Source: Porphyromonadaceae bacterium W3.11
GTDB lineage: Bacteria > Bacteroidota > Bacteroidia > Bacteroidales > Porphyromonadaceae
Length of the DNA stretch: 64,000 bases
Direction: 5' to 3'
Assembly: GCA_030434245.1 (NCBI GenBank)
Contig: JAUISX010000002.1
Coordinates: forward strand, 1 to 64,000
Within the stretch, counting starts at the first letter, position 1; every line of letters begins with the position of its first letter. The notes beneath the pieces are model-generated. The model was not told the origin of the DNA. It saw nothing but the letters and a program-made list of their open reading frames with translations, and did not search any database. Both the position numbers and the translations under genes were made by a program. Shown piece after piece: positions 45,878 to 62,097 of this stretch.

Positions 45878-47035
45878 TTACTTTTCATTGTTCTTCCTAA
45901 GTCCAAGAGTTAGATCTCCTATTCTTTTCTTCAGATAGTTTGCATTGATTGCAATACTACCTATCAAGTGTAGAGCGGATTCTACGCTAGGTAATGCACA
46001 TTTATATCGAGCCCCTTTCTTTACCTGTCTATTGAAGCGTTCTATCCAGTTAGTACTATGAATGTACTTGCGAACACTGACGTCGTATTTTAGGTATGTG
46101 AAGTAATACTCTATCCTCTGACCGTTAGCTATTTTTGTGAGAAAAGGATAGCTCTTACGCCATCTGAACGCAAAGTTTTTAAAGCTCTCTAGGCCATCTA
46201 AAGGTGAGCTTCTTGAGCCGTCTTTACTAAAGACCTCCTGTAGATCACTTGCGATGGCTGACTTATCTCGAGGGCGTATCTTTCGAGTTATTTCTCGCTG
46301 TAGATGCACCGTGCAGAGCTGGACTTCCACTTCTGTAAAGTGCTCACGTGCAACCTCTTCAATGTTATTCAACCCGTCTGAAATGATTAGTCCTACCTCT
46401 TCGAGTCCTCGGCTTTTTAGATCCTCAAAAAACTCGCCCCAGATGCCGCTTCCCTCTGTTGGATTATTATAGACACCCACGATGTCTCGACGTCCTTCGC
46501 TATCTAAACTCATCACTACAAAAAATGCCTCCTTGCTCACACTTTCTCCTCTCCGTACAGGAAGATATGTAGCATCGATAACAAGTGCCTCTAAAGTCCT
46601 CGGTAGACGTCTTTGACGCCACTCTTCTACTGCTTCTTGGGTCGATAAGGAGAGACGATTGATTTGACTCGTACTATAACGTTTACCATACAAACGCTCG
46701 AATACTCCAGAGATATCCTCCATCGTATTACCGCAGCTATATAGATAACCTGCTAGTTCTCCCATCTCTTTCTCTTGATCTTTGAGAACGCCTAAAATCA
46801 AGGGCATGAAGCCCTGCTGTCGAGTTCGGGGTACTCGTAATTCTAGCATATTACCACTCGCAAAGATGCGACGGGAGCGGTATCCATTGCTCACATCGCC
46901 ACTATCTTCTTTATACAGTTCCCTCTCCCCTTGCATCGCTATTTCGATGATTAACTCCATTAAACGGCCAACTCCATTTGGCTCTGTCATCAAGTTTGAT
47001 AGAATTTCCTTAAATTGCATTTGTGTAAGTCTCAT
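45878..47035 (-). CDS. IS256-family (mutator) transposase
   Basis: A 385-residue DDE transposase. Catalytic Asp154 (LVIDATYLPV), Asp220 (LIISDGLNN) and Glu332 (STNWIERFNR) are present, as are the C-x2-H pair CTVHLQR (241-244) and the mutator signature around them. It cuts and pastes the element through the 30-bp ends. The frame is complete, with its own -7 box at 47066-47073, so it may be active. Confidence 0.95.
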   Translation of the reverse strand: MRLTQMQFKEILSNLMTEPNGVGRLMELIIEIAMQGERELYKEDSGDVSNGYRSRRIFASGNMLELRVPRTRQQGFMPLILGVLKDQEKEMGELAGYLYSCGNTMEDISGVFERLYGKRYSTSQINRLSLSTQEAVEEWRQRRLPRTLEALVIDATYLPVRRGESVSKEAFFVVMSLDSEGRRDIVGVYNNPTEGSGIWGEFFEDLKSRGLEEVGLIISDGLNNIEEVAREHFTEVEVQLCTVHLQREITRKIRPRDKSAIASDLQEVFSKDGSRSSPLDGLESFKNFAFRWRKSYPFLTKIANGQRIEYYFTYLKYDVSVRKYIHSTNWIERFNRQVKKGARYKCALPSVESALHLIGSIAINANYLKKRIGDLTLGLRKNNEK

Positions 47036-47073: not shown

Positions 47074-47254
47074 ACATTCTTGGGACTTACACACTTTTTG
47101 GGGACAGTATCTATTTATGTAAGAATATCAATATAGTATTTCAAATGCGATTGCCCTAGTACCATGCCAGACTTAATACTTGAGGAAGTGTATTCCAGTC
47201 TCTCACAAATGTTTGTTCATAAAAATAATACTTTCTGTGTGATAACAAATAAAA

Positions 47255-47290
47255 GCCCCTTGAGAGTTGTCAATAGCACTCTCAAGGGGC
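47255..47290 (-). terminator. Terminator of the B12-riboswitch lipoprotein operon
   Basis: A perfect 13-bp stem (gccccttgagagt with actctcaaggggc) has a 10-nt loop. On the - strand it is followed by a T-rich run (ttttatttgtt). It lies 45 bp after the last gene of the operon. Confidence 0.85.
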
Positions 47291-47335
47291 ATACTTACCA
47301 CATCCTAATAATATGCTGGCTTGAAGAAATGATTA

Positions 47336-48673
47336 TTACTTAGCAGACTCAAATAGTCTTACAGGCCTTGAGAGTTGGTCTGTGTAATTATCACCATTTA
47401 CGTAAGCTCTAGCATAGTCAAAAACCATGCAATATACTTGATCAGATCCATTTGCAGTAGAAGAAAGGTACTCTCCACTTGACCCCGAAAAACTGGGACC
47501 CCATTCCTTGTGTATCTTACCTGCAGCAGGGAGAACACGTACAACCTTGCCCTTAGCTCCCTCCCAGAAGGCTGTTTTTGTAATGTCAGCAAGCTTGATA
47601 TCTGGCTGGTCACCAACGTAGCAGGCGGTTATTTTAAGCACCCTTAAACTATCATATTCGGTGTATTCATATAGCCAAGCAGACATCAAGTCTGTTCCTT
47701 TGTAGCGGAGTGCATAAGTTTTATTATGTTTTGTAGTTTTGTAATCATTGGTAGACTCAATAGTCTTGCCATTTACCATTACAGTCTCAGGGAGGTCATA
47801 GTCAATCTCCCCACCTTTATCCCAATCAAAATAGATACACTCTTCTACAGGTACCACGGCGAGCCACTCTTCCTTGGATGGCATGTGATAGGTCTTCCCA
47901 TCGATTTCTACTGTCTTAAACTTTTCTACCGCCTCTTCAAAGCTAAAGAAACCACACTTGTCATACTCGTGAGAGGTAGTAAATCCATTTCCCTCAGTGT
48001 TGACGTTGAATTCTGCTACGTTCTCCAAAGGTAATCTTGGATGATTAGGTGTGTCAGGAGCCTCTGCAGCATTGATAGGGAGCTTGAAGGTTTGCCCATT
48101 GTACTGGATGATAACCACACCATCCTTTTCGGTGATGTCTAAGTCTGCAGTACCATCTTGCCCGACTGCTTTCACAGGCTTGCCATCAGCGCCCATGATG
48201 GATTGCCATAGCTTGCCACCATCCATGCTCACCTCCCAGTAGCCATCAGCATCCACTCTAAACTGAGGTGTAGCAGTCTCCGCTCCATCCTCTCCTTCGG
48301 CTCTTACCTTCTGATTATCAGCATCCCGAAGCCAGTCGTCATCAATGGTCCAGTATAGCTTACCATCCTCATCCTTTTTTACCCCTACTGTGGGTTTTGT
48401 GCCATTCTTAAGGGTAATAGTTTTTCCACCGCCCATCACCAGCTCATATCCGCTTCCATCAGGTAGTGCTTTGTAGGATTTGATGCTGGATGACTCTATC
48501 AAGATCTTTAGATTTTGCACTTCCTTATTTACATTGTTCGAGAGTGCCTCCAATGTTTTGAGTCGCTTGTCGTGGTCATCGAGGCGACTGTAAATATCGT
48601 CTAAGTTTGTACACGCTGTAAAAAGCGATACAGACAATAGAATTAATAATAAGACAAGATAATTTCTTTTCAT
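47336..48673 (-). CDS. DUF4988-type lipoprotein with C-terminal FISUMP-like domain
   Basis: A 445-residue lipoprotein (lipobox LFTAC, Cys21). After the lipid anchor comes a short coiled coil (DDIYSRLDDHDKRLKTLEAL), then a DUF4988-like region (about 60-200) with repeats of the kind KDEDGKLYWTIDDDWLRDADNQKV and YWEVSMDGGKLWQSIMGADGKPV. The C-terminal part (about 240-440) reads YHMPSKEEWLAVVPVEE and resembles the FISUMP surface domain. It is the last gene of the B12 operon, 19 nt after its neighbour. Role unknown; surface exposed by analogy. Confidence 0.75.
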   Translation of the reverse strand: MKRNYLVLLLILLSVSLFTACTNLDDIYSRLDDHDKRLKTLEALSNNVNKEVQNLKILIESSSIKSYKALPDGSGYELVMGGGKTITLKNGTKPTVGVKKDEDGKLYWTIDDDWLRDADNQKVRAEGEDGAETATPQFRVDADGYWEVSMDGGKLWQSIMGADGKPVKAVGQDGTADLDITEKDGVVIIQYNGQTFKLPINAAEAPDTPNHPRLPLENVAEFNVNTEGNGFTTSHEYDKCGFFSFEEAVEKFKTVEIDGKTYHMPSKEEWLAVVPVEECIYFDWDKGGEIDYDLPETVMVNGKTIESTNDYKTTKHNKTYALRYKGTDLMSAWLYEYTEYDSLRVLKITACYVGDQPDIKLADITKTAFWEGAKGKVVRVLPAAGKIHKEWGPSFSGSSGEYLSSTANGSDQVYCMVFDYARAYVNGDNYTDQLSRPVRLFESAK

Positions 48674-48692
48674 ACTTCTAAATTAAAAATGA

Positions 48693-50330
48693 TTATATAA
48701 TCTCTTCTATATCTTCGGTTCCTGGTTCGCCTATTTCTAATATTTTCCCAAACTTATCCCTGTGCTTCCATTTTTCGTAAGTGGGTTTAGCACCTTGGGG
48801 GACAACTAATACGGCGATTTTCTTGATGCCCAATTCGCCCTTCAGGAGAGGTGGCTCGGCACCCACATGGAGTATGCCCCACTCCTCCATTCGTACGCAC
48901 TTCTCAAAAGCTTTATCCCCAATCTCTTTGAGGTGTGGTGCTGAGACTAAGGAGAGCATCCTACAGTAGTAGAAGGCTCTTTCGCCTATTACCTCAATTG
49001 AGGGAGTCCGCTTCATCTCGGAGAGCATCGATCTACACTCTGCAAAGGCATAAGGACCAATGAACTTTAGTTTCGCCATTTCTACCCTATATAGGTTGGG
49101 GGCTGCGTAAAAGGCACGTTCTCCCACCTTTACTACGCCATTGGCAGTGATGCTGGAGAAGTCGGTTCCCGCAGCATTCGCAAAGGCTTTGTCACCAATC
49201 TCATTGAAGTACTCGGGGATGACTACCTTCCATGCGTATCCTTTTGCTATATCGGTAACTCCTATGATTTTTCGACCTTCTGCTGCAAGTCCCTCTGGCG
49301 GTGGCACCACATCTTCAATTAGCTCTCCATTGATGCTACTAAAGCCATTCTCGACAGCCCAGTTTTCAAAGCTATCAATATCCACACCCGAAGGAGTGAG
49401 TAGGTTTTTGTCTTCTTTCGTATCCTGAAAGGGAGATTCTGCTCCTACTACGGGTAGCTCGGCACCTATCTCTAGTGATTGAAGTGCTGCACAACCAGCA
49501 AAGGCTCCATTGCCAATAGCTTTTATTTGAGGGAGAGTTACCTCCTTAAGGGTGGTGCATGCAGAAAAGGAGAAGTTACCCACCTTTTCTACCTTGGGAA
49601 GCGCTACTTTACTTAGTGATGTAGCTCCAAGAAAAGCATTGTCACCAATAGTTTCAGCAGCCGGAAAATCTATCGTAGTCAAGTGCGGCGTCTTTGCAAA
49701 AGCACGTGCTCCAATAGTTTTCACCCGATTCCCCTTGATGCTCTTCAACTCAGTGTACCCATCAAAGACCCCTTCGGCGATTGCCACGACAGCATCGTCC
49801 AGAACCACTTCTCCACCATTGACCTTAGTCAAGGGGTAGGCGAGTAATTTGCCTTTAGATGTTATCACAAATCCAGTTATACTCTGACCATTGATGGCTT
49901 CGAAGCCACACCGCTTTGCCCAAGCGAGGAGAACCTCCTCTATCGTGGTGGGTATTATGAGTTCTTTGTCATCGGGTGTGCCCCTGAATGCCATGGCATC
50001 CACTTTGGGTAAGTGGGGAGTCTGAAGGACTACCTTTTTCAATTGTCCACACCCATCAAATGCACCATTCTTTATCTGCTCTATACCTTGTAAGGAGAGC
50101 TCCTTCAGACGATCGCAGTCTCTGAATGCTCCAGTAGCAATCACCCGAATATCTTTTGATAGCTCTACTCTTCCAGTGTTAGATATGATGGTGTTGGGAT
50201 AGTGTAGTAATATTCCATCCTCCACCTCTTCCTGTGGCTTAGAAGGAGAGCAGTAAGCAAACATTAGTGCAAGCAGACAGAGGAGCAACCACCGCAAACT
50301 TTTTTTCATCATCTCCATCGTTCCAAACAT
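48693..50330 (-). CDS. BspA-like leucine-rich-repeat lipoprotein
   Basis: A 545-residue protein with a lipoprotein-type signal (Cys27 in FAYC, an imperfect lipobox) and many LRR_5 repeats of the BspA type (for example AFRDCDRLKELSLQGIEQIKNGAFDGC and AFAKTPHLTTIDFPAAETIGDNAFLG), arranged in groups separated by unrelated stretches at about 115-165 and 315-365. BspA proteins bind host and bacterial surfaces. The ATG at 50330 follows an AGGAA site. Third gene of the B12-controlled operon, 18 nt after the propeller gene. Confidence 0.85.
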   Translation of the reverse strand: MFGTMEMMKKSLRWLLLCLLALMFAYCSPSKPQEEVEDGILLHYPNTIISNTGRVELSKDIRVIATGAFRDCDRLKELSLQGIEQIKNGAFDGCGQLKKVVLQTPHLPKVDAMAFRGTPDDKELIIPTTIEEVLLAWAKRCGFEAINGQSITGFVITSKGKLLAYPLTKVNGGEVVLDDAVVAIAEGVFDGYTELKSIKGNRVKTIGARAFAKTPHLTTIDFPAAETIGDNAFLGATSLSKVALPKVEKVGNFSFSACTTLKEVTLPQIKAIGNGAFAGCAALQSLEIGAELPVVGAESPFQDTKEDKNLLTPSGVDIDSFENWAVENGFSSINGELIEDVVPPPEGLAAEGRKIIGVTDIAKGYAWKVVIPEYFNEIGDKAFANAAGTDFSSITANGVVKVGERAFYAAPNLYRVEMAKLKFIGPYAFAECRSMLSEMKRTPSIEVIGERAFYYCRMLSLVSAPHLKEIGDKAFEKCVRMEEWGILHVGAEPPLLKGELGIKKIAVLVVPQGAKPTYEKWKHRDKFGKILEIGEPGTEDIEEII

Positions 50331-50348
50331 TTATATTCCTTAGGATTA

Positions 50349-51647
50349 TTAATTGCAAGGGATGAAGTACGCGGAGGTTAGAGTCCACATATTCCAGCCT
50401 ATACGGTGTTGTTTTTGATGTTGTTGCAGACCTTCAGTCATCGGAGTGTCTAAGTCGTAGATGTTCACATGACCACCTAAGATTTGCTTGTCACTGTGGT
50501 AGTAGAAGGTAAATAGCTTGTGTTGGTACTTGTCTACAATTAGGCGAGCTCTTCCAGAGGAGGGGTCGGAGGTCAACATATCCATTTTGGCAAATTTTAC
50601 TGGAGCAATACGAGTCTTACCACTTAGTTCATCCTCAGTCAGTGAGGTAATATCTATCTTGAAGATAAAAGGTCTTACTAAAGTATGGTTAAACGCAAGA
50701 TAAAGTTGTTTCTCCTTCCTGTCATAAGCCATCCCATGTACTTTCCCCATCTTCGTTTCCAGCTTCAGTGGGTCAATCACAAAAGCACGTTCGGTAATAG
50801 AGTAGACCCCTACGCTACCGTCACTAAAGGAGAGGTACAATAGGTCATCGGCTCTATCCACCAACCAAATAGCATTTGGAAATTGTTTGGTGTGGCAAGA
50901 TGAATTCTTCGGATTGAACTCCACCAGCACCGAGCCAGCATCTAAGTCCATGAAGTCGAAAGCATACATCTTTCCATTGTATATGAAGGATTCGTGAATT
51001 TCCCTGCCATTCAGAGCTTCAACTTCTATCTTTTTGTCTGGGTCTTTCGCTAAATCCACTCTATAGGTTTTCTTCAATCGCCTATAGGATAGATAGATGC
51101 TATTTTCATCAAACGCAAAGATGTCATCCGGGAATGATTGTGCCTCAGTAGAATAGGCATTGAAATCCTTCTGCTTAATCAACTCAAAAGTGCTACTTGA
51201 AATAACACTCACCCGTCCATAGGGGTTGAATCCAGGGAGATTGGTATTGTGTCTTGTATTGACCCGTACCATGCTACTGCAGAGCAGGAGTCGCTCCTCA
51301 TTAGGGAGCCGATGCAAGAAACTGGTGTATCCCCACTGTACATACTGATTGGGCTCGTAGAGCACCTCTTGTTGGAGGTTATTATCTTTGTCGAATAGAT
51401 AAATACGAGGACCCACAGAGGCGTCTTCATAGTAATAGCCTTGATCTGTGGCTACTGAGCCTTTGTCAAAAACCAAAAACCTCCTGTTTCCATACCCCTC
51501 TAATTGCTCCTCGTCCAGCTTGTCTTGTCGCTTTTCCGATGACGGAGTAGGGTGATTACACCCAAGACAAGTGAGCAAATAGAGAAGTAAGGATGACAGG
51601 AGAGTTAATGATTTAGTTACAAGAATTAAATAACCTTTGTTATTCAT
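50349..51647 (-). CDS. BF3164-like beta-propeller lipoprotein
   Basis: A 432-residue lipoprotein (lipobox LGC, Cys30). The rest is a TolB-like propeller of the Bacteroidetes BF3164 family: successive blades with phrases like GYTSFLHRLPNEERLLLCSS, FDENSIYLSYRRLKK and MAYDRKEKQLYLAFN. BtuG, the corrinoid-binding surface lipoprotein of gut Bacteroides, is also a propeller, though with seven blades and another family. Being second in a B12-riboswitch operon suggests a similar capture role; that is an inference. It starts 8 nt after the LRR gene. Confidence 0.75.
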   Translation of the reverse strand: MNNKGYLILVTKSLTLLSSLLLYLLTCLGCNHPTPSSEKRQDKLDEEQLEGYGNRRFLVFDKGSVATDQGYYYEDASVGPRIYLFDKDNNLQQEVLYEPNQYVQWGYTSFLHRLPNEERLLLCSSMVRVNTRHNTNLPGFNPYGRVSVISSSTFELIKQKDFNAYSTEAQSFPDDIFAFDENSIYLSYRRLKKTYRVDLAKDPDKKIEVEALNGREIHESFIYNGKMYAFDFMDLDAGSVLVEFNPKNSSCHTKQFPNAIWLVDRADDLLYLSFSDGSVGVYSITERAFVIDPLKLETKMGKVHGMAYDRKEKQLYLAFNHTLVRPFIFKIDITSLTEDELSGKTRIAPVKFAKMDMLTSDPSSGRARLIVDKYQHKLFTFYYHSDKQILGGHVNIYDLDTPMTEGLQQHQKQHRIGWNMWTLTSAYFIPCN

Positions 51648-51655
51648 CTCATCTA

Positions 51656-52996
51656 TTATTCTTCAATGTCGCAGAACTCTGCTAAATCGGGGAAGTGAAT
51701 TAGATTAGGATCAGGTTCGTATTTTGGAATTAACCTATCTGCCTCTTCATTCGTAATGTTGTCAAATACATAGCCATCTTGCTGAGGAATGATACCTCCC
51801 AAAATAGCAGGTCTTGCCAAATAATAATTTGGAACACTACCCGTTAGCTTATTTCCCTTTAGCACAAGTGGTGTAGGATATACCACAGGGTCAGGAACTA
51901 TGCCAGTGAAGTTATTGTATGATAAATCTACTTCATATAGTGTACCATCCAATAGTGGTGCAAGTACATTCATGAAGTCTCCCTCTAATTGATTGTACCC
52001 TAAAGAAATAGAACGCAGAGCTTCCATAGAAGCAAGTGTCTTAGGAAGTTGACCCGAAAGCTTATTATGAGCTAACTCAAGATCCCACAAGTGAGGTAAT
52101 TTAGCAATGTTTTCTGGGATAAAGCCTTCGAAGTTATTGTAGTTCAACCATAGTCTCTCCAAGCTGACCAACTCAGCAATCCAAGTAGGGAACTTTCCGG
52201 AGAATTGGTTGTATGAGAGGCATAGATTGTTCAGATTCTTTAGGTTACGCATAGAAGATGGTAATTCACCTGAGAACTTACACAGTTCGGTGTCGATTTC
52301 CTCCAAGGCTACACAATTACCTATCTCCTCTGGCAATTCTCCTGAAAAGCCCTGACGTCCGAGGTCGAGGTAACGCATCTTCTTCAATTGCCCAATTTCC
52401 TTAGGGAGTTTCCCCGTCATCAGTGCCTTATTGCGCACGTATGGATAAACTTCCTGCTGGAAAGTGAAAGTGCGTAGATTCAAAGTGTCCATCTCTACCC
52501 ATTGTCCAATCTTTGGAGATAGCTCACCGGTGATACTTGTCATTCTCAGATTGAGTACCTCCAACTTGCGTAGGTCATATAATTCTTCTGGGATAGAGCC
52601 AGTTAGTCGCTCATTCCACTTCAAATCTAAGACTCTAAGCTCAGATAGCTGACCAAGTACTGCTGGGATATCTCCTCTGAGGTCTACGGCGCCAAGCCTA
52701 AGTTCTACTACTCTCTTTTTACCATTGATGGTCTCCACCTTCACACCTCTCCAGTATTCCAGTGGGTCATTTAACCAGCCTGCATTCCAGCGCCAGTTCT
52801 CACCGTCAGTTTCTTTGTAAAACTGCACCAATGCTAAGCTGTCATTCATAGCTACGTTAGAAGTCTCGTTAGCCATCGCGTACTGGGTTGTAGTTCCCGA
52901 TGGTGCATCAGTAGTCAGAAACTCCTGTTTGCAAGATGCAAATAGCATGCTGCCCATTACGAGGAACAGTGACGCATTTAGTAATCTTTTTGTCAT
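51656..52996 (-). CDS. Plant-type leucine-rich-repeat lipoprotein
   Basis: A 446-residue lipoprotein (lipobox LFASC, Cys22). From about residue 100 to 390 there are LRRs of the plant-specific type (L..L.LS.N.F.G.IP or variants such as LYNFEGFIPENIAKLPHLWDLEL). Before them is a cap DSLALVQFYKETDGENWRWNAGWL, common in Bacteroidetes LRR proteins. It is first in the operon under the cobalamin riboswitch, with the leader of about 540 nt. It may act in adhesion or ligand capture at the surface. Confidence 0.82.
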   Translation of the reverse strand: MTKRLLNASLFLVMGSMLFASCKQEFLTTDAPSGTTTQYAMANETSNVAMNDSLALVQFYKETDGENWRWNAGWLNDPLEYWRGVKVETINGKKRVVELRLGAVDLRGDIPAVLGQLSELRVLDLKWNERLTGSIPEELYDLRKLEVLNLRMTSITGELSPKIGQWVEMDTLNLRTFTFQQEVYPYVRNKALMTGKLPKEIGQLKKMRYLDLGRQGFSGELPEEIGNCVALEEIDTELCKFSGELPSSMRNLKNLNNLCLSYNQFSGKFPTWIAELVSLERLWLNYNNFEGFIPENIAKLPHLWDLELAHNKLSGQLPKTLASMEALRSISLGYNQLEGDFMNVLAPLLDGTLYEVDLSYNNFTGIVPDPVVYPTPLVLKGNKLTGSVPNYYLARPAILGGIIPQQDGYVFDNITNEEADRLIPKYEPDPNLIHFPDLAEFCDIEE

Positions 52997-53345
52997 GTTT
53001 TGCGATAATTAATTTATAAATTAAACATTCGTACGAATTATCTGTAAGGGATTAAAGGCTTTAAGATTAACGAGACAAGAGTAGCCTGACGGCATCTTAC
53101 TATGCAGACACCACCTTTGGGAAGTCAGATTACGGACAGACAAATTCTGAGTAACTAATGCGCGCACTATCTTCAAAGCCTTCAACAACTTTCTAAAGGC
53201 TTCTGAAGTGAAAAATGTTTTTGGGAAATCAACCCTAAGTTAGAACCTACCAAAGTGGTAATTTTCAGAAATTAGGCAGAAGATAAAACAAAAAACTTCT
53301 TCATCCAGCTTTAACCCCAGAAAGCTTTGGATAATAAAAATTGTT
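52997..53345 (-). other. Long leader between riboswitch and first lipoprotein gene
   Basis: About 350 nt of transcribed leader after the riboswitch with no convincing gene. Such length between aptamer and start codon is unusual. It may hold the expression platform or a decayed reading frame. Confidence 0.4.
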
Positions 53346-53530
53346 ATGGCAGGTCTTCTGACTTACTCTTATTCTGCACCCTTCCCATCCTTAATAATAG
53401 GACAGTGGTTCAAGACTTGCAAAATACTTTACCTTAATATAATTAAGGAGAGCTTACAGCAGCCGGACTGTTCAGGACTTTCACCTGATTCCCTTTTCAT
53501 CACACTCTTACGGAGGTAAAAGTGTAACAC
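53346..53530 (-). ncRNA. Cobalamin riboswitch
   Basis: Read on the - strand the region has, in order, the core AAAAGGGAATCAGGTG, AAGTCC, ACAGTCCGG, CTGCTGTAAGC, CCACTG, then GATGGGAAGG and finally the B12 box AAGTCAGAAGACCTGCC. All key blocks of the cobalamin aptamer are in the proper order. It precedes the four-lipoprotein operon and should lower its expression when cobalamin is plentiful. No btuB-like gene lies downstream. Confidence 0.92.
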
Positions 53531-53543
53531 CATAAATACCACA

Positions 53544-53576
53544 GCAAAGTTAGGACTTTTAAAGGATATAACCAAA
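53544..53576 (-). promoter_or_regulatory. Promoter of the riboswitch operon
   Basis: On the - strand a TTTG at 53573-53576 and TAACTTTGC at 53544-53552 are 20 nt apart. That is the Bacteroidetes sigma pattern (-33 TTTG, -7 TAnnTTTG). Transcription would start a few bases before the riboswitch. Confidence 0.7.
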
Positions 53577-53799
53577 CTATTTGTTGACTGGTGAACAGTG
53601 ATTGATGGTGTCGGTGCCTGCTCTTACTATTCAATTGGAAAGAAGTTTCTGCTACATTGAGTACAGGGGTAATGTATTAGCACTTTCAATGGTGACCGAT
53701 AGGCTATATCTCACATGACCAGTAGTCCTATTCAATGATGATTGGTAGATTATATCTCGGGTGAACATTTAATATATACTAAATAGGATGATTAATATA
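53577..53799. other. Region between riboswitch promoter and IS982
   Basis: About 220 bp. It holds two imperfect copies of a 35-bp stretch around 53688 and 53734 (caatg, tga, g.tag, tatatctc in common). No gene is supported. Confidence 0.4.
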
Positions 53800-55091: not shown

Positions 55092-57701
55092 TTAATACCA
55101 CCAGGTGACACGAGTACTACTAATCAACTCGCTCCACTTCGCAGGCCATTTATACTTATCAGAATAACCGAACCCGATTCCCGTCCATTTTCTTAAGCTT
55201 TTAGCATTTGCGACATATGTCGCTTCAGGAATTGTAAAGGTAAACTCATAGCCCCATTCACCATTCACAGACTTTCCACTATTAGATAAACTATAGTTTG
55301 CATCAGTAGTAAGATTCGTATCCAAATAGGTCCCTGGATACATACCCCAAATTTCAGGAGCAGCATCAAAAGGTCTAATGTTATAATTGTTGTTGTAATG
55401 ATACAAGAAGCCCTTAACAGATACAGACACGCCATCGAATCTAACAGAAGTAGATGCCGCCAACCACTGTGCAACTGTCATCTTCTTTTTTACAAGGTAA
55501 CTGAAGTATCCATAGTCATTTACCCTTGTAATCCAAGCTGAGATCTCCAATTCCACATTACCAGTAATAGTATTATCAAGGATCTGTAGATTAAACTTAC
55601 CTCTGTCGTCCACAGACATCAATTTTATCTTATCACCAGTGTATGCCACACCTCCTAACTTAAATTGAATATCATTTTCTGCTGTAGAAGGCATGGTCTT
55701 ATGGGAGTTATCAGGGAGAAAATAATCAATAACAAAAGCATTCTCCCGTACTGATGGATCTCCACCAGTGCCACCACCTACACCATAAATGGTTTGGTTG
55801 GTATACAGCTCCGAAGACAGAGTGATAGGACTTGGGAGCGTTGCTGTACCATCATTTATTGTTACAGGAATACTAATTCTATGATCCCCTTCTATAGCTG
55901 CTGTATAAGCCTCTGGAGTCAGTGTATAGCTGTAAAAAAGTTTCTTCTTCATTACTCCATTCTCCTCCACCTCTCGTTCCACGATCATCAGGTCAGATGT
56001 TGCATTACCACCCTTATTGCGTGGTGTAATATCACCTGCTTCAATCAGTACTTCAAGAGGTAGAAGTGGCATAGGAAGCGACTTATACACCTCGAAGGAC
56101 AATAGCATATCAGAAATAACCGTACTCATAGAATCACGCACCAATGTGGCATTGAAGCGATAAGGACTCCTCAAGGTAATATGCACCGTGCGGGTGATAG
56201 GCGTTGTGGCTCCTGTTACACCATCCAGTACAGGAGTCTTCATTTTGGGATCATACCCCGGGTCACCGGGATTAAGTCCTGATGACTTATCAGCATACCT
56301 CAATCCCACCACCTCCACTTTATATTCCTCAATATTATCAGCAGGGATACGATTGACAGTAAAGGTAAACTTCGTTTGCATGGGATCAGTGGTAGTAGTT
56401 TTATTCCAATCACCCATCTGAGGGTCATTCACTTTATCCCAATCGGGGTAGAAGCGAGTATAAGTACTGGTACCATTAAAAAGGGTATTAAAGGTGTATG
56501 TACCCGGCTTCACAATCACCATCTCGATAGGATCTACGGTCAGGTGATACGTACCATCAGAGACCTTTGAGAAGCCCTTCATCTCCACAGAGGCGAAGAT
56601 ATTATTATCTGCAGGTGCTTTAAGGGCATCCTCAAGAGTAGCATACCCCTTAGATTTGATACGTGAAATATTGATGACGTACCAGTTATTCCTCAATATC
56701 TGGATGTAGTCATTGATCGAAAATTCATCTTTTCTATTGACTAAGTCAACCTTGAAATAACGTATGTCTGAGCCCTTTATACCACGGATGACCACACATA
56801 CCTTTTTGGTATCATGATCGTTCTTAGACTCAAACAGATTGAAAGTCTTGTCGAGGGTAATCATAGAATCATCGGTCGGTGCAGGCAGGAAGTCCGCATC
56901 AGCTGGTACGGTTGCCTCGGTCACATTGAATGGAAACTCATACGTATAGTTCTGCACCTTAAATGGTGCTACCATCCCTTTATTGAGAGTGTTGGCCACA
57001 CAATAACCATTAATAGTAAATCCATCTTCTGACGATACCTCAGTAGCAACTTTAATCTCAATCTTGGCATAGTTACGAAGGAGCTTTATCACCTTTCCCT
57101 CTAGCGTAGACTTATCCAACTTGTCCACACGCACCATCGACCACATAGGGTCAAAAGAGGTAGTCTTGTTATTTCCATTGCCTCCACTAAGCATAGTATA
57201 CAATTGGGTCATCAGCTCTCCAGCGGAGGTTCCCTTGAGGAAGTAGTCCTGCGAAAAGTTTTTCCAGTCATAATCCGCCACAAAGTGAAGGTAGCGAGGT
57301 TTGCTACTCTCAACCAACTTCACCTTAAAAGAACGCATATTCTGAATACTATCCCGCTTACCATCAGGCAAGTAAACACCATCTTCCTCAGGGGCGTTGG
57401 CAGTACCTTCACCTAATACCGCTTCAGCAGTATAAAGGAACTTCTGATCCTCATTAAAAACCAAGACACGCATGTGCTCAATATCCTTAATGCTTTCCAC
57501 GCCACCGCTCCTCAGGTCGTTAAGCGGAAGATTGCTCGCTTGGACCCCGAAAGATGCTACGAACTCCCTACCATCTACAATCTCTATATTATTCTCAGGC
57601 TCTGCACCTCTATGCTCTGGAGAGCATGCAGAGAAGAGTATCATCACCACTAATGCAATGACCATAGAGAAATATCCTACATGCTTATATATCCTTTTCA
57701 T
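55092..57701 (-). CDS. Fimbrial tip/accessory lipoprotein (FimE-like position)
   Basis: An 869-residue lipoprotein (lipobox FSAC, Cys26). The N-terminal half is fimbrillin-like (MRVLVFNEDQKFLYTAEAVL, then RYLHFVADYDW), with beta-rich domains after it. It closes a five-gene fimbrial operon. The P. gingivalis FimE is about 550 residues, so this one is much longer; an extra domain at about 380-640 explains the difference. It ends in WSELISSTRVTWWY. By position it would be a minor component carried at the fimbrial tip. Confidence 0.7.
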   Translation of the reverse strand: MKRIYKHVGYFSMVIALVVMILFSACSPEHRGAEPENNIEIVDGREFVASFGVQASNLPLNDLRSGGVESIKDIEHMRVLVFNEDQKFLYTAEAVLGEGTANAPEEDGVYLPDGKRDSIQNMRSFKVKLVESSKPRYLHFVADYDWKNFSQDYFLKGTSAGELMTQLYTMLSGGNGNNKTTSFDPMWSMVRVDKLDKSTLEGKVIKLLRNYAKIEIKVATEVSSEDGFTINGYCVANTLNKGMVAPFKVQNYTYEFPFNVTEATVPADADFLPAPTDDSMITLDKTFNLFESKNDHDTKKVCVVIRGIKGSDIRYFKVDLVNRKDEFSINDYIQILRNNWYVINISRIKSKGYATLEDALKAPADNNIFASVEMKGFSKVSDGTYHLTVDPIEMVIVKPGTYTFNTLFNGTSTYTRFYPDWDKVNDPQMGDWNKTTTTDPMQTKFTFTVNRIPADNIEEYKVEVVGLRYADKSSGLNPGDPGYDPKMKTPVLDGVTGATTPITRTVHITLRSPYRFNATLVRDSMSTVISDMLLSFEVYKSLPMPLLPLEVLIEAGDITPRNKGGNATSDLMIVEREVEENGVMKKKLFYSYTLTPEAYTAAIEGDHRISIPVTINDGTATLPSPITLSSELYTNQTIYGVGGGTGGDPSVRENAFVIDYFLPDNSHKTMPSTAENDIQFKLGGVAYTGDKIKLMSVDDRGKFNLQILDNTITGNVELEISAWITRVNDYGYFSYLVKKKMTVAQWLAASTSVRFDGVSVSVKGFLYHYNNNYNIRPFDAAPEIWGMYPGTYLDTNLTTDANYSLSNSGKSVNGEWGYEFTFTIPEATYVANAKSLRKWTGIGFGYSDKYKWPAKWSELISSTRVTWWY

Positions 57702-57714
57702 ACTCGAAAAAATA

Positions 57715-60420
57715 TTATTTCCTTACTTCGTTAGCACCCTTGTCATCCAACCCAAAGGTATCAAAGACACAGCGAACAAAAATTTTGGGCAGATTATAGC
57801 CACCCCAAGAAGCTGTACCAGCGTAAGATGAATAAACCCAACGATTATTTTTGAATTCATAAGCTTTATCTTCCTCGGCAGTCCAATAATATGAACCAAA
57901 CATCAAGCCCTTAACAGTAGAGTTGGGATCCTGCTGCAACCTATTAATCATATCCACCTCCGCAAGTGTAGGGATTCTCCAGTGCCCCTTATACTTAAAG
58001 GTCTTATGGATGGTTCTTCTTTTCCAAAAACCATAATCATCAATATAATTTTCCACATAATCACCATCTGCCCCATATTCTCCTTCGAAATATTTGTAAC
58101 AGCGATCCTCAGCAGAAGTATAAGTCCTCCATAATAACTGCTGATTGTTACCATCTTGGTAGGGATCATAAAAAATATTGACTTGGTATTCATAATAGGT
58201 GGGACGGTTATAATAATAGAGACCAGCATAAAGTTTAAACCAATTACCAGAATAGCCGCTACGAGTATAATTATTTTGATAAGGAGTTTTCCTCTCAAAT
58301 TTCGATCTCCCAGAATGAGGACCATACCCTTGCGCAAAAGACTGCCATAAACTGAAACCGTCAGCAGGAATTCTAGCATTATTGGTCCTCTGCTCAGTAC
58401 CTTGAGACATACCATACTGTGAAGAAATAATAAACTCTGGCGAAATCATCTTATTTGATTGTTCGTCCGACTTAGTCTTCCCACTAGCATCAACTGCAAC
58501 ACCAATAATCTCACCACTCTGAGGAACGACTGTCGAAACGCGGGAAAAAATCTCATTTCCTTGAGCTTCTAGTTTCGTACTACCAATTGCAGAGAAAGGC
58601 GCTAATGTACCAAGTGGAGTTTGATGCCTAAAGTCGGCGTATACAGACTGCCCCTCAGATTTTTCAGAGCCATTCCAAAGCCCTGGCGACTCGTTACCAG
58701 TAACAAATCGAGGGGGGTACTGGGTCACTACTACTTTGTCTTCGAGGGTACCAGGACTATCTTGCTTTACGGTAAACTCAATATAGAAAGGTACATAGTT
58801 ATTAGGGACAGCGTGCTCAATGGTGAGCACCCCATTCTCCAAGTACTCCGGGCCAGCAGAAACGGCAGCCCCGTCCCAAGGCACATCTGTATAGGTAGCA
58901 GCACCCACTAGCGCTCCATTCTTATCATATACCCTCTTGTAACCCTTGTCATCATACTCCACCCTATAGTAAATTCCTCTAAGGTCGTAGTACTGGTAAT
59001 ATGCTTTGGTAATCGTAGTCGTCACCGGTGTACTGGAGATGTACCCTACCTCACGGATGTCTGTATTAGGCATCAGTGGCTTATGCTCCTTGATGACTAA
59101 GAAGTGTGCCTGCTCTATCGTGCCATCAATCTCATCCGCCCTATTCCACTCCTGTACAGCCACATTGGAGTTTACATCTACAGGCTTGCCCTCATCTATA
59201 CTACCCAAGACACCGATAGTGGTGTAGATATCGTAGAGGTGATTACGCTCCAGTTTATTGAGCTTCTCTGTGGGCACTCCATCCATTTCCTTACGGAAGT
59301 TGATAGGCAAGCGATAGAAGTAGTAACGACCTTCATCGATAACACTTCCAGGGGTACCCTCTGGCACCACCTTCCCCTGAGCATCTACATAGTATGGTTT
59401 ACTATCTTTGTCCACTGGTCTCAGTTTTACCCTGACTATCACATATGTTTCGTGCGACTGATTACCTACAGAGCTCCAGTCATTCTCATAGGTATAGAAA
59501 GGAATTGCAGCATAAAAATCTCCATTGTACTTTGGATACTTAGTAGCATCCTTCCCTGAGAAAGTCCTAAGGGGCATCGTACGATAGGCAGATTCATCTT
59601 TCCACTCAGTGGCTTTCACCTGATATGGAGCATCACTCTTGATAAGCGTACCCTTCTCAGTGTAGTGTACCAGCTTTATAGCCGGCTCGTCAACCATTAC
59701 ATACTTCGTCTCTACACCATTCTGTAGATCTACCACATCAATGCTCTTATTGACCCTTACACGGATCTTAGACGCTGCTCTACGGAGCTTTACAGTACCA
59801 GCCTGAGTGGTAGTATTAGCCCCCCAAGTAAGTGTAGAGGTAATAGTGCCATCCATCAAGAATTTATCCTGAAGTTCCACTTTACCATCAGCTTGAGGAT
59901 CAGGCGAGAGTTTGCCCTTATCATCCTGCACTAATGCCTTGAGCTGGTCATAAGAGGCAACAGTAGAGAAGTCGCTTTGGGTAGCATTGGCAATCATGAA
60001 TATCTCCACCGACTTACCCTCCAACTGGTCTGCAAGGGACTTTGCCACCTTAGCTTTTACAGACTTTTTTGCTGTATCCAACTCCAAGCTTTTACCGGCA
60101 CTGGAGTAGTGCCCCTTGAGGCTACCACTCTCTATAAGGAATAAATCTATCTTATCTATCTTATTCTCATTGAGGGGATCCAAACCATAATAGCTACCTT
60201 GATCAAAGTCGCCATCTTCCTCGGTCACTCCACGAAGCGATGCCAATGATGGACTGGGAGCATCGTGATTTACGATACTTATTGGGACCTCCAAAGTGAC
60301 ATAATCGCCACTAAGCTCAGTAATGAACTCTTGCTCGTTCCTCATATCACTCTTGCAAGACGATGCTAACAGCGCAAGAATAAGTCCCAAGCTGAGTAAT
60401 ACCATCTGCTTAGTCTTCAT
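57715..60420 (-). CDS. Fimbrial tip/accessory lipoprotein with C-terminal FISUMP-like domain (FimD-like position)
   Basis: A 901-residue lipoprotein counted from ATG 60420, which starts a clean signal (MKTKQMVLLSLGLILALLASSC); an ATG eight codons upstream exists. The first part is fimbrillin-like with IDKIDLFLIESGSLKGHY and VEIFMIANATQSD; a domain ends about 420. The C-terminal part has HWRIPTLAEVDMINR, LMFGSYYWTAEEDKAYEF and an end RCVFD, the FISUMP lectin-like pattern. FimD of P. gingivalis is about 670 residues. It sits 33 nt after the FimC-like gene. Probable tip adhesin. Confidence 0.72.
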   Translation of the reverse strand: MKTKQMVLLSLGLILALLASSCKSDMRNEQEFITELSGDYVTLEVPISIVNHDAPSPSLASLRGVTEEDGDFDQGSYYGLDPLNENKIDKIDLFLIESGSLKGHYSSAGKSLELDTAKKSVKAKVAKSLADQLEGKSVEIFMIANATQSDFSTVASYDQLKALVQDDKGKLSPDPQADGKVELQDKFLMDGTITSTLTWGANTTTQAGTVKLRRAASKIRVRVNKSIDVVDLQNGVETKYVMVDEPAIKLVHYTEKGTLIKSDAPYQVKATEWKDESAYRTMPLRTFSGKDATKYPKYNGDFYAAIPFYTYENDWSSVGNQSHETYVIVRVKLRPVDKDSKPYYVDAQGKVVPEGTPGSVIDEGRYYFYRLPINFRKEMDGVPTEKLNKLERNHLYDIYTTIGVLGSIDEGKPVDVNSNVAVQEWNRADEIDGTIEQAHFLVIKEHKPLMPNTDIREVGYISSTPVTTTITKAYYQYYDLRGIYYRVEYDDKGYKRVYDKNGALVGAATYTDVPWDGAAVSAGPEYLENGVLTIEHAVPNNYVPFYIEFTVKQDSPGTLEDKVVVTQYPPRFVTGNESPGLWNGSEKSEGQSVYADFRHQTPLGTLAPFSAIGSTKLEAQGNEIFSRVSTVVPQSGEIIGVAVDASGKTKSDEQSNKMISPEFIISSQYGMSQGTEQRTNNARIPADGFSLWQSFAQGYGPHSGRSKFERKTPYQNNYTRSGYSGNWFKLYAGLYYYNRPTYYEYQVNIFYDPYQDGNNQQLLWRTYTSAEDRCYKYFEGEYGADGDYVENYIDDYGFWKRRTIHKTFKYKGHWRIPTLAEVDMINRLQQDPNSTVKGLMFGSYYWTAEEDKAYEFKNNRWVYSSYAGTASWGGYNLPKIFVRCVFDTFGLDDKGANEVRK

Positions 60421-60453
60421 ATTGATAAAATTACAAATCTTCATTACTTAATC

Positions 60454-62097
60454 TTATTGCATTACCTGCTTAATATTCCATCTCTTGGTAGAGCCCTCAC
60501 CCAAGTACTTTCCCAGATTTCCTGGCTTGACACTTAGATCAAGCTCTCGACCCTCTACTGTAATAAAGAACTGGGTATACTTAGCTTCTTTATAATACTC
60601 TGCCCTTGGCCATATCTGCATATTGTACACCTTGTCAGGATTAGAACCCACGATTTCGGCTGGCGCCACTAAATCCTTAAAGTCACCTCTCAGCTCAAAG
60701 TCCAATCCATTGGTGATAGATGCCACCCACATGTTACCACGTGGCTCAGTAATCTTGAAAGAAATATCCACATAGCAGTCTGGCGGTACAATCACCTCTC
60801 CCAACTCGGAATATACCTTTTCTTCGATTACAACACCACCAATTTCCTTAACCACCTTAAGGGTAAAGTCATACGCTGGTCTTGCATACGACATCTCGCT
60901 CTCCACCAATGTCCATGGCATCACCTGGAAATTAACTACCAACTCCTTATCATCCTCAGGAATATTGACATTAAACTGGTAGTTATTGTTGCGAACGATG
61001 CTGTAGTTGGCATTTACGCCTGCGACGTTGTTCATCGCCATATCTAAATAGTCCGCAGTAGAGACCTTGTCTTTCCAATCACTCTCCTTATTGGTAATGA
61101 CTGGGATCGTATAGATACGACCACTTTTCATCGCAATCTTGATGTAAGTAGGATTACCTTTCATTTGGCTTGTCGAGGCATCCCAACCCATCTCAGTCTT
61201 AGCCTTCACGCCCAAGAGGCGCTCAGGTATGTACATCTGGGTGTAGAAAGAGGATTCCGTCGTAGGAATCGTGCCTTGGAAAGTCTTCGTCTTCTCCAAT
61301 GTCTCGGGCAAGGTATTAGCAGCCAGCTCCATAAAACTGTGCTGAGTGGGGACATTGACCAGCTCTACCTTGGTCACATCCTTAAGGCCTTCGCCAGTCA
61401 GGGTCAATCCAATCTTGGCTGACGAGCGCACTAGGTTGACCGTCTGCTGTGTCCCAGCGGTCTCAGTGCTCTCTGGCCACGTACTCACAGGACCCAACAA
61501 TCCTGTATCAGTGGTGACTGGAGTGAATGGGATAGGATTGGCAAATGTACCACCCTTAGTGACTGTCTGACTCTCATAGATACGAGCCATCGGGAAGTAA
61601 GCATCGGCGGAAGCCCCATTGTACAATTCTACTCCAGTGTCTCTACTTTTAAAAGTTTGCAACTCCCTTAATGTCGGTGCCACATCCTTGTAGAATTGAA
61701 TTCCCTGTAGTGTTTTCTTCCAGCTCTGGGGATAGTTTGCCACAAAGCAGAAGTGGTAATTGGTGCCATCCACCGGCTCCATCTCCATGGTGAAAGACTT
61801 GTAGGTAGTGAAGTGGCTCTTGACCAACTTACCTTCAGTTGTTGCTTCATAAACCAATACAGCCAATTCACCTACATAGTCCTCAAACTCCTTAGCATCA
61901 GTATTAATAGAGGGGACATTGCCCTGTGCTCGAGTAGAGGCATTTGGCATCTGAATCCCCGCCATCGAGAATTGGAGGTAAGTTTTTTTCGGGTTGTTAG
62001 TCGACAGCTCATCCTCTCCTTGCTTCTTACACCCGGTGAAGAGTGTAGCCACAAGGCTGAGTACAACAGCAAATATATTTAGTTTATTTCGAAGCAT
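60454..62097 (-). CDS. Fimbrial accessory lipoprotein (FimC-like position)
   Basis: A 547-residue lipoprotein (lipobox FTGC, Cys23) with a fimbrillin-like start: TYLQFSMAGIQMPNASTRAQ, then ELAVLVYEATTEGKLVKSHF and YHFCFVANYPQSW. FimC of P. gingivalis is about 450 residues and joins the tip set. It is third in the operon, 24 nt after the FimB-like gene. The C-terminal part is beta-rich and ends in STKRWNIKQVMQ. Confidence 0.7.
   Translation of the reverse strand: MLRNKLNIFAVVLSLVATLFTGCKKQGEDELSTNNPKKTYLQFSMAGIQMPNASTRAQGNVPSINTDAKEFEDYVGELAVLVYEATTEGKLVKSHFTTYKSFTMEMEPVDGTNYHFCFVANYPQSWKKTLQGIQFYKDVAPTLRELQTFKSRDTGVELYNGASADAYFPMARIYESQTVTKGGTFANPIPFTPVTTDTGLLGPVSTWPESTETAGTQQTVNLVRSSAKIGLTLTGEGLKDVTKVELVNVPTQHSFMELAANTLPETLEKTKTFQGTIPTTESSFYTQMYIPERLLGVKAKTEMGWDASTSQMKGNPTYIKIAMKSGRIYTIPVITNKESDWKDKVSTADYLDMAMNNVAGVNANYSIVRNNNYQFNVNIPEDDKELVVNFQVMPWTLVESEMSYARPAYDFTLKVVKEIGGVVIEEKVYSELGEVIVPPDCYVDISFKITEPRGNMWVASITNGLDFELRGDFKDLVAPAEIVGSNPDKVYNMQIWPRAEYYKEAKYTQFFITVEGRELDLSVKPGNLGKYLGEGSTKRWNIKQVMQ

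What the first reader, a model, noticed from the sequence alone, without database searches (positions are those of the whole stretch)
47255..53576. B12-riboswitch operon of four surface lipoproteins without a BtuB receptor
A complete operon can be read: promoter (53544-53576), cobalamin aptamer (53346-53530), four lipoprotein genes 8-19 nt apart and a terminator (47255-47290). The products are two LRR lipoproteins, a BF3164-type propeller and a DUF4988 protein. Known Bacteroidetes B12 loci usually pair the riboswitch with the TonB receptor BtuB and capture lipoproteins such as BtuG, a propeller. Here no TonB receptor is present, so the four may form a new corrinoid capture or adhesion complex, or help take corrinoids from host or microbe surfaces.
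Basis: partly seen in the sequence, partly recalled or inferred. Interest (0 to 1): 0.85.

Follow-up and report, generated by a model that had tools for sequence, protein, structure and literature searches.

The report
B12-switched surface lipoprotein operon
In a Porphyromonas bacterium, a vitamin B12 sensor in the RNA heads a set of four surface proteins, relatives of which stand beside the B12 importer genes in some other bacteria, so they are probably helpers that catch B12 outside the cell.

Summary
In detail: a strong cobalamin aptamer (93.2 bits), a Bacteroidota-type promoter, four lipoprotein genes 8-19 nt apart, a 13-bp-stem terminator, and no TonB receptor. (1) The promoter-to-terminator unit exists twice in this genome (99.7% identical). 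A third, diverged riboswitch-LRR-propeller operon lies on another contig. (2) The receptor is not missing from the cell: two other riboswitch operons encode BtuB with BtuG. (3) Some relatives tie the module to B12 uptake. In P. pasteri and Porphyromonas oral taxon 278, LRR1, BspA-type LRR and propeller genes end a btuB-btuG-btuH-DUF5074 operon. In a Bacteroidia MAG, one riboswitch heads btuB-btuG-btuH-DUF5074-DUF6580-propeller-LRR-LRR. The propeller is a distant relative of the DUF5074/BtuG group; the BF3164 label found no support. Best reading: an accessory corrinoid-acquisition module, split from the receptor operon and acting in trans with BtuBG. Against it: in the stretches fetched, 7 of 11 LRR1 loci have no Rfam riboswitch and 5 of 11 no B12 link at all; corrinoid binding is untested. 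New variant of a known kind; LRR proteins in B12 loci are not described in what I could search.

The parts
53545..53576 (-). promoter, TTTG-N20-TAACTTTG
   Evidence: read directly; TAnnTTTG near the aptamer start in 95 of 108 riboswitches, shuffle mean 6.4
53331..53549 (-). cobalamin riboswitch aptamer RF00174
   Evidence: 93.2 bits, full model; identical in the second copy
52997..53330 (-). leader between aptamer and first gene; no convincing btuB remnant, no TAnnTTTG inside
51656..52996 (-). LRR1: lipoprotein with plant-type leucine-rich repeats
   Evidence: Pfam LRR_1; alignment A3 with relatives
50349..51647 (-). lipoprotein, diverged beta-propeller distantly related to the DUF5074/BtuG group
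48693..50330 (-). BspA-type LRR lipoprotein
   Evidence: Pfam LRR_5 2.1e-55; alignment A4
47336..48673 (-). DUF4988 lipoprotein; its C-terminal part belongs to a paralogous surface family
   Evidence: about 70 residues of it shared by proteins next to LRR1 in G420/G421
47255..47290 (-). intrinsic terminator
   Evidence: 13-bp stem, 10-nt loop, T-run
47239..53606 (.). duplicated unit (outer ends approximate), second copy at about C2:188.8-195.2 kb (L016)
   Evidence: 99.67% over 6368 nt; 21 differences
45878..47035 (-). transposase-like ORF of a multicopy element, not part of the operon; the element abuts the second copy directly
   Evidence: the name transposase is recalled

Best explanation
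The operon is a receptor-less accessory module of the Bacteroidota corrinoid (B12) uptake system. When intracellular cobalamin is scarce, the riboswitch lets the operon be expressed and four lipoproteins are made and placed on the surface: two LRR solenoids, a BtuG-like propeller and a DUF4988 protein. They capture or present corrinoids, or the proteins and particles that carry them, and hand the vitamin to the BtuB/BtuG transporters encoded in two other riboswitch operons of the same genome. Shown: aptamer, gene order, duplication, homologues inside btuB-btuG-btuH operons, BtuB/BtuG elsewhere in the genome. Inferred: repression by B12 (established for this riboswitch class), lipidation and surface exposure, corrinoid handling. 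The division of labour (propeller binds corrinoid, LRRs bind a protein partner) is a guess.
For: The aptamer is strong and full length. Three riboswitch operons in this genome begin with LRR1 followed by the propeller; two are near-identical copies and the third has 37% identity in LRR1. In P. pasteri (G012) and oral taxon 278 (G015) the genes follow btuB-btuG-btuH-DUF5074 on one strand. In the MAG S5R_St_3 (L195) a 109.7-bit riboswitch heads btuB-btuG-btuH-DUF5074-DUF6580-DUF5074 propeller-LRR-LRR with gaps of -4 to 51 nt. The receptors in L015 and L019 match solved B. theta BtuB (1.3e-132 to BtuB1; 2.8e-52 to another BtuB), and the L015 partner matches BtuG1. The window propeller's family profile reaches DUF5074 proteins. 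A propeller of this or the DUF5074 kind accompanies LRR1 in 11 of 11 loci. The window DUF4988 protein resembles a DUF4988+DUF5074 protein in the BtuB1 operon L015 (5.9e-14). Precedent: in B. theta, operon 1 starts with btuK1-btuK2-btuH1 behind a riboswitch, and btuB1 has an additional one (PMC12751083: section 5 read; passages).
Against: In the stretches fetched, 7 of 11 LRR1 loci lack an Rfam riboswitch: G002, G012, G015, G018, G420, G421, L196. Five of 11 have neither a riboswitch nor a receptor gene: G002, G018, G420, G421, L196. Riboswitch-linked LRR1 outside this genome rests on one MAG. No match to a proven corrinoid binder covers the LRR proteins. The window propeller alone matches only the L014 relative (8.8e-6), and its model is poor (pLDDT 58.5). 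Foldseek also returns many non-B12 propellers with equal or better scores. BtuL, a B12-locus lipoprotein of B. theta, showed no cobalamin binding (PMC12751083, passages), so co-operonic does not mean binder.
Confidence: 0.62

Rival explanations
1. Adhesin complex: the LRR proteins bind host or microbial surfaces, and low B12 only serves as the cue that tells the cell to attach. Corrinoid is never handled.
For: BspA-type and internalin-like LRRs are commonly adhesins (recalled). The best NCBIfam model for the BspA-type protein is the adhesin HupY/LrrG, 57.7 bits of a 1250 cut-off; for LRR1 the best are LRR effector models (XopAC, XopAE) and a fibronectin-binding model, all far below cut-off. 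HupY shows both roles can coincide: an LRR adhesin that also binds heme (PMC6593403, abstract and passages). Five of 11 loci have no B12 link.
Against: Placement inside btuB-btuG-btuH operons and the constant propeller partner point to corrinoid handling.
Confidence: 0.2
2. Incidental capture: a surface lipoprotein cassette among IS elements landed behind a cobalamin riboswitch; B12 control has no function.
For: The unit is duplicated beside IS elements; in most of the loci found the module has no riboswitch.
Against: A second, diverged riboswitch-LRR-propeller operon in the same genome. Its aptamer and the window's are reciprocal best matches by small margins (0.558; next 0.536 and 0.545), though by local alignment a G014 aptamer is nearly as close to L014 (92.4 against 95.1 bits). 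An independent riboswitch-btuB-...-LRR operon in L195.
Confidence: 0.1
3. Vesicle or surface-organisation role like BtuL: the proteins shape or load outer-membrane vesicles during B12 starvation and bind no corrinoid.
For: BtuL precedent in B. theta (PMC12751083, abstract and passages).
Against: No sequence link to BtuL was tested; I saw nothing in the sequence that points to it.
Confidence: 0.05

Closest known systems
B. theta cobamide loci 1-3 (BtuB/BtuG/BtuH/BtuJ/BtuK/BtuL)
   Same: Cobalamin riboswitch, surface lipoproteins, btuB-btuG core with variable accessory lipoproteins; btuK1-btuK2-btuH1 also precede a second riboswitch that serves btuB1
   Different: The term leucine-rich does not occur in the main text of the four papers searched; here the accessory set is wholly detached from any receptor and present in two copies plus a related operon
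BtuG / DUF5074 propellers
   Same: Lipoprotein signal, propeller prediction, family-profile link to DUF5074
   Different: Window protein matches no Pfam model; 16-18% identity to its relatives other than its own copy; not next to btuB
HupY/LrrG of streptococci
   Same: Surface LRR protein, adhesion plus tetrapyrrole (heme) binding, regulated with nutrient acquisition genes
   Different: Gram-positive LPXTG protein, heme, MtsR-regulated; family cut-off not met
P. pasteri / oral taxon 278 btuB-btuG-btuH-DUF5074-LRR1-BspA-propeller operon
   Same: Same LRR1, BspA and propeller families
   Different: Joined to the receptor; no Rfam riboswitch found upstream

Membership tests
Cobalamin riboswitch RF00174 | score over the gathering cut-off, full-length aptamer | tested here: met
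   93.2 against 31.5 bits
Cobalamin riboswitch RF00174 | ligand-dependent control of the downstream gene | not testable with these tools
   needs a reporter or transcript measurement
Bacteroidota BtuB-BtuG uptake operon | TonB receptor BtuB beside BtuG in the operon | tested here: not met
   no receptor among the four genes; present elsewhere in the genome
BtuG | sequence match to solved BtuG or its family | tested here: not met
   phmmer and profile against the PDB give no BtuG; hhalign to the BtuG alignment 81.6% probability, E 1.1e-5
DUF5074 propeller group | profile relation to PF16819 members and propeller fold | tested here: inconclusive
   window protein itself no hit; its family profile finds DUF5074 proteins at 1.4e-7, relative L014 3.7e-6 just below cut-off; Foldseek propellers include BtuG and BT1487 among many others
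BF3164 lipoprotein | family model hit | tested here: not met
   no hit at E 0.1 in Pfam or 0.05 in NCBIfam; whether these libraries hold a BF3164 model was not checked
BspA-type LRR | PF13306 over cut-off | tested here: met
   186.5 bits against 27.7
HupY/LrrG | NCBIfam NF047961 cut-off 1250 bits | tested here: not met
   57.7 bits

The most novel reading that the evidence does not exclude
The LRR1 and BspA-type lipoproteins are docking proteins for corrinoid carriers (for example host B12-binding proteins such as salivary haptocorrin, or corrinoid-loaded vesicles or cells). The propeller strips the vitamin off and passes it to BtuBG: a cargo-protein receptor complex under riboswitch control, which would be a new way of scavenging B12.
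Probability: 0.15. Interest if true: 0.82.

Novelty: new variant of a known kind. Interest (0 to 1): 0.52.

Why it matters
Many Bacteroidota depend on scavenged B12, and their known toolkit keeps growing by accessory lipoproteins (BtuG, BtuH, BtuJ, BtuK). If this module is a further accessory, leucine-rich-repeat proteins join that toolkit, and some proteins now labelled 'adhesins' may be cofactor scavengers. The link is testable with purified proteins and a reporter.

Tried and rejected
A lost btuB in the leader: tblastn of the 464 operon proteins against the leader (best 30 hits viewed) gave weak hits only: a BtuD-like protein on the opposite strand (E 1.7e-4, 24.6% over 61 residues, low-complexity filter off) and short BtuG or receptor snippets of 10-14 residues at E 0.04-0.1, which I take as chance. 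Terminator-type expression platform in the leader: fold not clearly better than shuffles (z -0.82, 40 of 200 shuffles as good), so the switching mechanism stays open. BF3164 label: no hit. Structure of the window propeller: pLDDT 58.5; a relative gave 75.8, but among the 50 rows shown Foldseek ranks unrelated propellers with or above BtuG, so fold alone does not single out BtuG. Riboswitch upstream of btuB in P. pasteri and oral taxon 278: none found, also at E up to 10. First profile hits of the propeller could be due to the proline-rich linker; repeated without it, and some of the earlier weak hits vanished. Literature: the three searches were seen as listings (20 of 34, 15 of 105, 4 of 5 papers listed); in the rows listed no paper joined leucine-rich repeats to B12 loci. 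The four main papers hold no 'leucine-rich' in the main text (passages only). Degnan et al. 2014 is not held, so it may describe such genes.
Full report
What was checked. The aptamer at 53331-53549 (-) scores 93.2 bits over the whole RF00174 model. A TTTG-N20-TAACTTTG promoter stands directly before it. The motif TAnnTTTG is near the aptamer start in 95 of 108 riboswitches surveyed, against a mean of 6.4 in single-base shuffles; that this is the Bacteroidota promoter consensus is recalled. Four genes follow with gaps of 8, 18 and 19 nt, then a 13-bp terminator at 47255-47290. A crude lipobox rule flags three of the four products; the BspA-type one is judged by eye.

What the genome adds. The genome (2.63 Mb, 9 contigs) has 11 cobalamin riboswitches. 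The window unit from about 47239 to 53606 is repeated on the same contig at about 188.8-195.2 kb with 99.67% identity, 21 differences and an identical aptamer. The repeat begins shortly before the promoter and ends just after the terminator, where a multicopy IS-like element abuts the second copy. A third riboswitch operon (L014) holds LRR1 and the propeller, diverged (37% and 18% identity). Its LRR gene has its likely signal peptide and mature part in different frames, so it may be broken. Two further riboswitch operons hold BtuB with BtuG. L015 encodes a receptor matching B. theta BtuB1 (8blw_A, 1.3e-132), a BtuG (8ptf 5.8e-39, 8blw_B 3.3e-38), a protein with a BtuH domain (8blw_B 2.6e-57, 7biz 1.9e-40), a lipoprotein and a DUF4988+DUF5074 protein. 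L019 encodes a receptor matching solved BtuB (8p98_A, 2.8e-52) beside a DUF5074-type BtuG relative (7.2e-7 to PF16819; 5.3e-6 with the L015 BtuG). So the operon lacks a receptor but the cell does not.

Relatives. Contig names and lengths, set, identify G002 as Porphyromonas somerae (placed in the same genus as the window's genome), G012 as P. pasteri, G015 as Porphyromonas sp. oral taxon 278 and G018 as P. catoniae. At E <= 1e-50, LRR1 relatives occur in 7 of 38 family genomes, own genome included, 9 loci. In wider draws at stricter cut-offs they were found in 3 of 393 genomes of the order (E <= 1e-55) and 1 of 395 of the class (E <= 1e-90), all in this family. One search kept 80 of 459 relatives; four of the 80 are the places in G002, G012, G015 and G018. 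Of the rest I scanned six with Rfam (L195, L196, L203, L210, L253, L254) and read the genes of four (L195, L196, L203, L210). L195 (a Bacteroidia MAG) and L196 (Hoylesella marshii) carry LRR1-size lipoproteins and are counted below; the LRR matches in L203 and L210 are long proteins of 1157-1880 residues. The other 70 were not examined in context.

Contexts of these 11 loci. Own genome: three loci, riboswitch directly upstream, no btuB. G012 and G015: at the end of a btuB-btuG-btuH-DUF5074 operon, no Rfam riboswitch in the leader; the G012 btuH product matches that of G015 at 1.3e-187 and the BtuH part of the L015 protein at 2.5e-117. L195: riboswitch (109.7 bits), then btuB, btuG, btuH, DUF5074, DUF6580, a DUF5074 propeller related to the window's, LRR, LRR. 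G420 and G421: a protein sharing about 70 residues with the C-terminal part of the window's DUF4988 protein, a DUF5074-type protein found by the BtuG profile, LRR1 and two BspA-type LRRs in a row, no riboswitch. G002, G018 and L196: LRR1, BspA and propeller without riboswitch or receptor gene in the 14-21 kb fetched; in L196 BspA repeats and propeller are fused in one protein. Riboswitch-linked: 4 of 11 loci, 2 of 9 genomes. B12-linked in either way: 6 of 11 loci, 4 of 9 genomes. Propeller present: 11 of 11, of which 9 belong to the window propeller's own family and two (G420, G421) only to the DUF5074 kind. BspA-type LRR present: 9 of 11 (not L014, L195).

Survey of riboswitches. I took 92 of 94 riboswitches of the other family members searched (dropped: one at a contig end, one below cut-off), 5 of 6 of one genome of the order (G039; one below cut-off), and the 11 own ones: 108. 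Simple ORF calling with gaps up to 600 nt gave 43 of 108 with a receptor cluster I recognised and 13 with no gene; the calling is crude, and at least one of the 13 (G006:C7) does have a gene at 248 nt. Seven had B12-lipoprotein clusters without a recognised receptor: the three LRR operons here, one DUF5074 gene (G020) and three operons of a BtuH-like protein plus a 2.3-2.5 thousand-residue DUF4465 protein (G013, G014, G021). LRR1 follows a riboswitch in 3 of 108, all in this genome. So receptor-less surface operons under this riboswitch recur. In those three cases they carry families with known B12 binders (BtuH: PMC8941943, passages; DUF4465: PMC13398666, start of abstract in the listing).

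The propeller. The window protein has no family hit, and alone it finds only its own copy and the L014 relative (8.8e-6). With the linker removed, its family profile finds DUF5074-type proteins at 1.4e-7 (L195 and G001). hhalign gives 95.4% with the L195 propeller and 81.6% with the BtuG alignment. The L014 relative scores 26.7 against the DUF5074 cut-off of 27.2. Foldseek returns propellers including BtuG (8okv, 8ptf) and BT1487 (4r5o) for the window model and BtuG (8blw, 8ptf) for the relative's model, but equally WD40 and dehydrogenase propellers. I conclude: probably a propeller, distant relative of the DUF5074/BtuG group, not a BtuG by sequence.

Mechanism and doubts. Cobalamin riboswitches repress B. 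theta uptake operons when B12 is present (PMC12751083 section 5; passages of PMC8941943 and PMC6143338). The simplest reading is that B12 scarcity switches on a surface capture or presentation module that feeds the BtuBG transporters. LRR solenoids usually bind proteins (recalled), so they may dock BtuBG, a carrier protein or a surface; this step is a guess. The main doubt is that most loci found lack the riboswitch and five lack any B12 link, so an adhesin role cued by B12, or a passenger cassette, cannot be excluded. B. theta operon 4 is B12-regulated without an identifiable riboswitch (PMC12751083 passages), so lack of an Rfam hit is not proof of lack of control.

Novelty. Lipoproteins behind a riboswitch separate from that of btuB are known (btuK1-btuK2-btuH1). 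LRR proteins in B12 loci did not appear in what I could search, with the limits that listings were partial and that the 2014 survey of these loci is not held.

Noticed in passing
L134, L142, L168 (G013, G014, G021): Cobalamin riboswitch followed by a BtuH-like protein (8blw_B 2.5e-55 for L134; the other two match it at 1.1e-215 or better) and a 2331-2464-residue protein with a DUF4465 domain in 3 of 3; C-termini look like type IX secretion signals (by eye in two, recalled). Possibly secreted giant B12 catchers..
   Followed up: partly
L102, L111, L138, L143, L148, L160, L164, L170, L171, L176, L183: In 11 genomes the riboswitch precedes genes that look like 4-hydroxybutyryl-CoA dehydratase, CoA transferase and aldehyde dehydrogenase (names recalled), suggesting B12 scarcity shifts fermentation. 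A paper reports the dehydratase case in Tannerella, and a riboswitch before a hypothetical protein in Porphyromonas (PMC7160235, passages).
   Followed up: partly
L136, L139, L167, L099: Cobalamin aptamers with no same-strand ORF of 100 aa or more within 2 kb downstream: possible orphan or regulatory RNAs..
   Followed up: no
L013 near the riboswitch at C5:234271-234466: Cobalamin riboswitch 419 nt before a glutamate-dehydrogenase-like ORF (name recalled)..
   Followed up: no
L163 (G020): Riboswitch 402 nt before a 2469-aa ORF that looks like SprA/Sov of type IX secretion (recalled)..
   Followed up: no
L067 4780-5130: Blocks of inverted repeats (ACCAGTACTGGT and GACCTATATAGGTC types) before btuB in P. 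pasteri, where no riboswitch is found..
   Followed up: no
window 55092-62097: Large ORFs upstream of the operon, the first with a lipoprotein-type start, that look like a fimbrial locus (recalled, not tested)..
   Followed up: no
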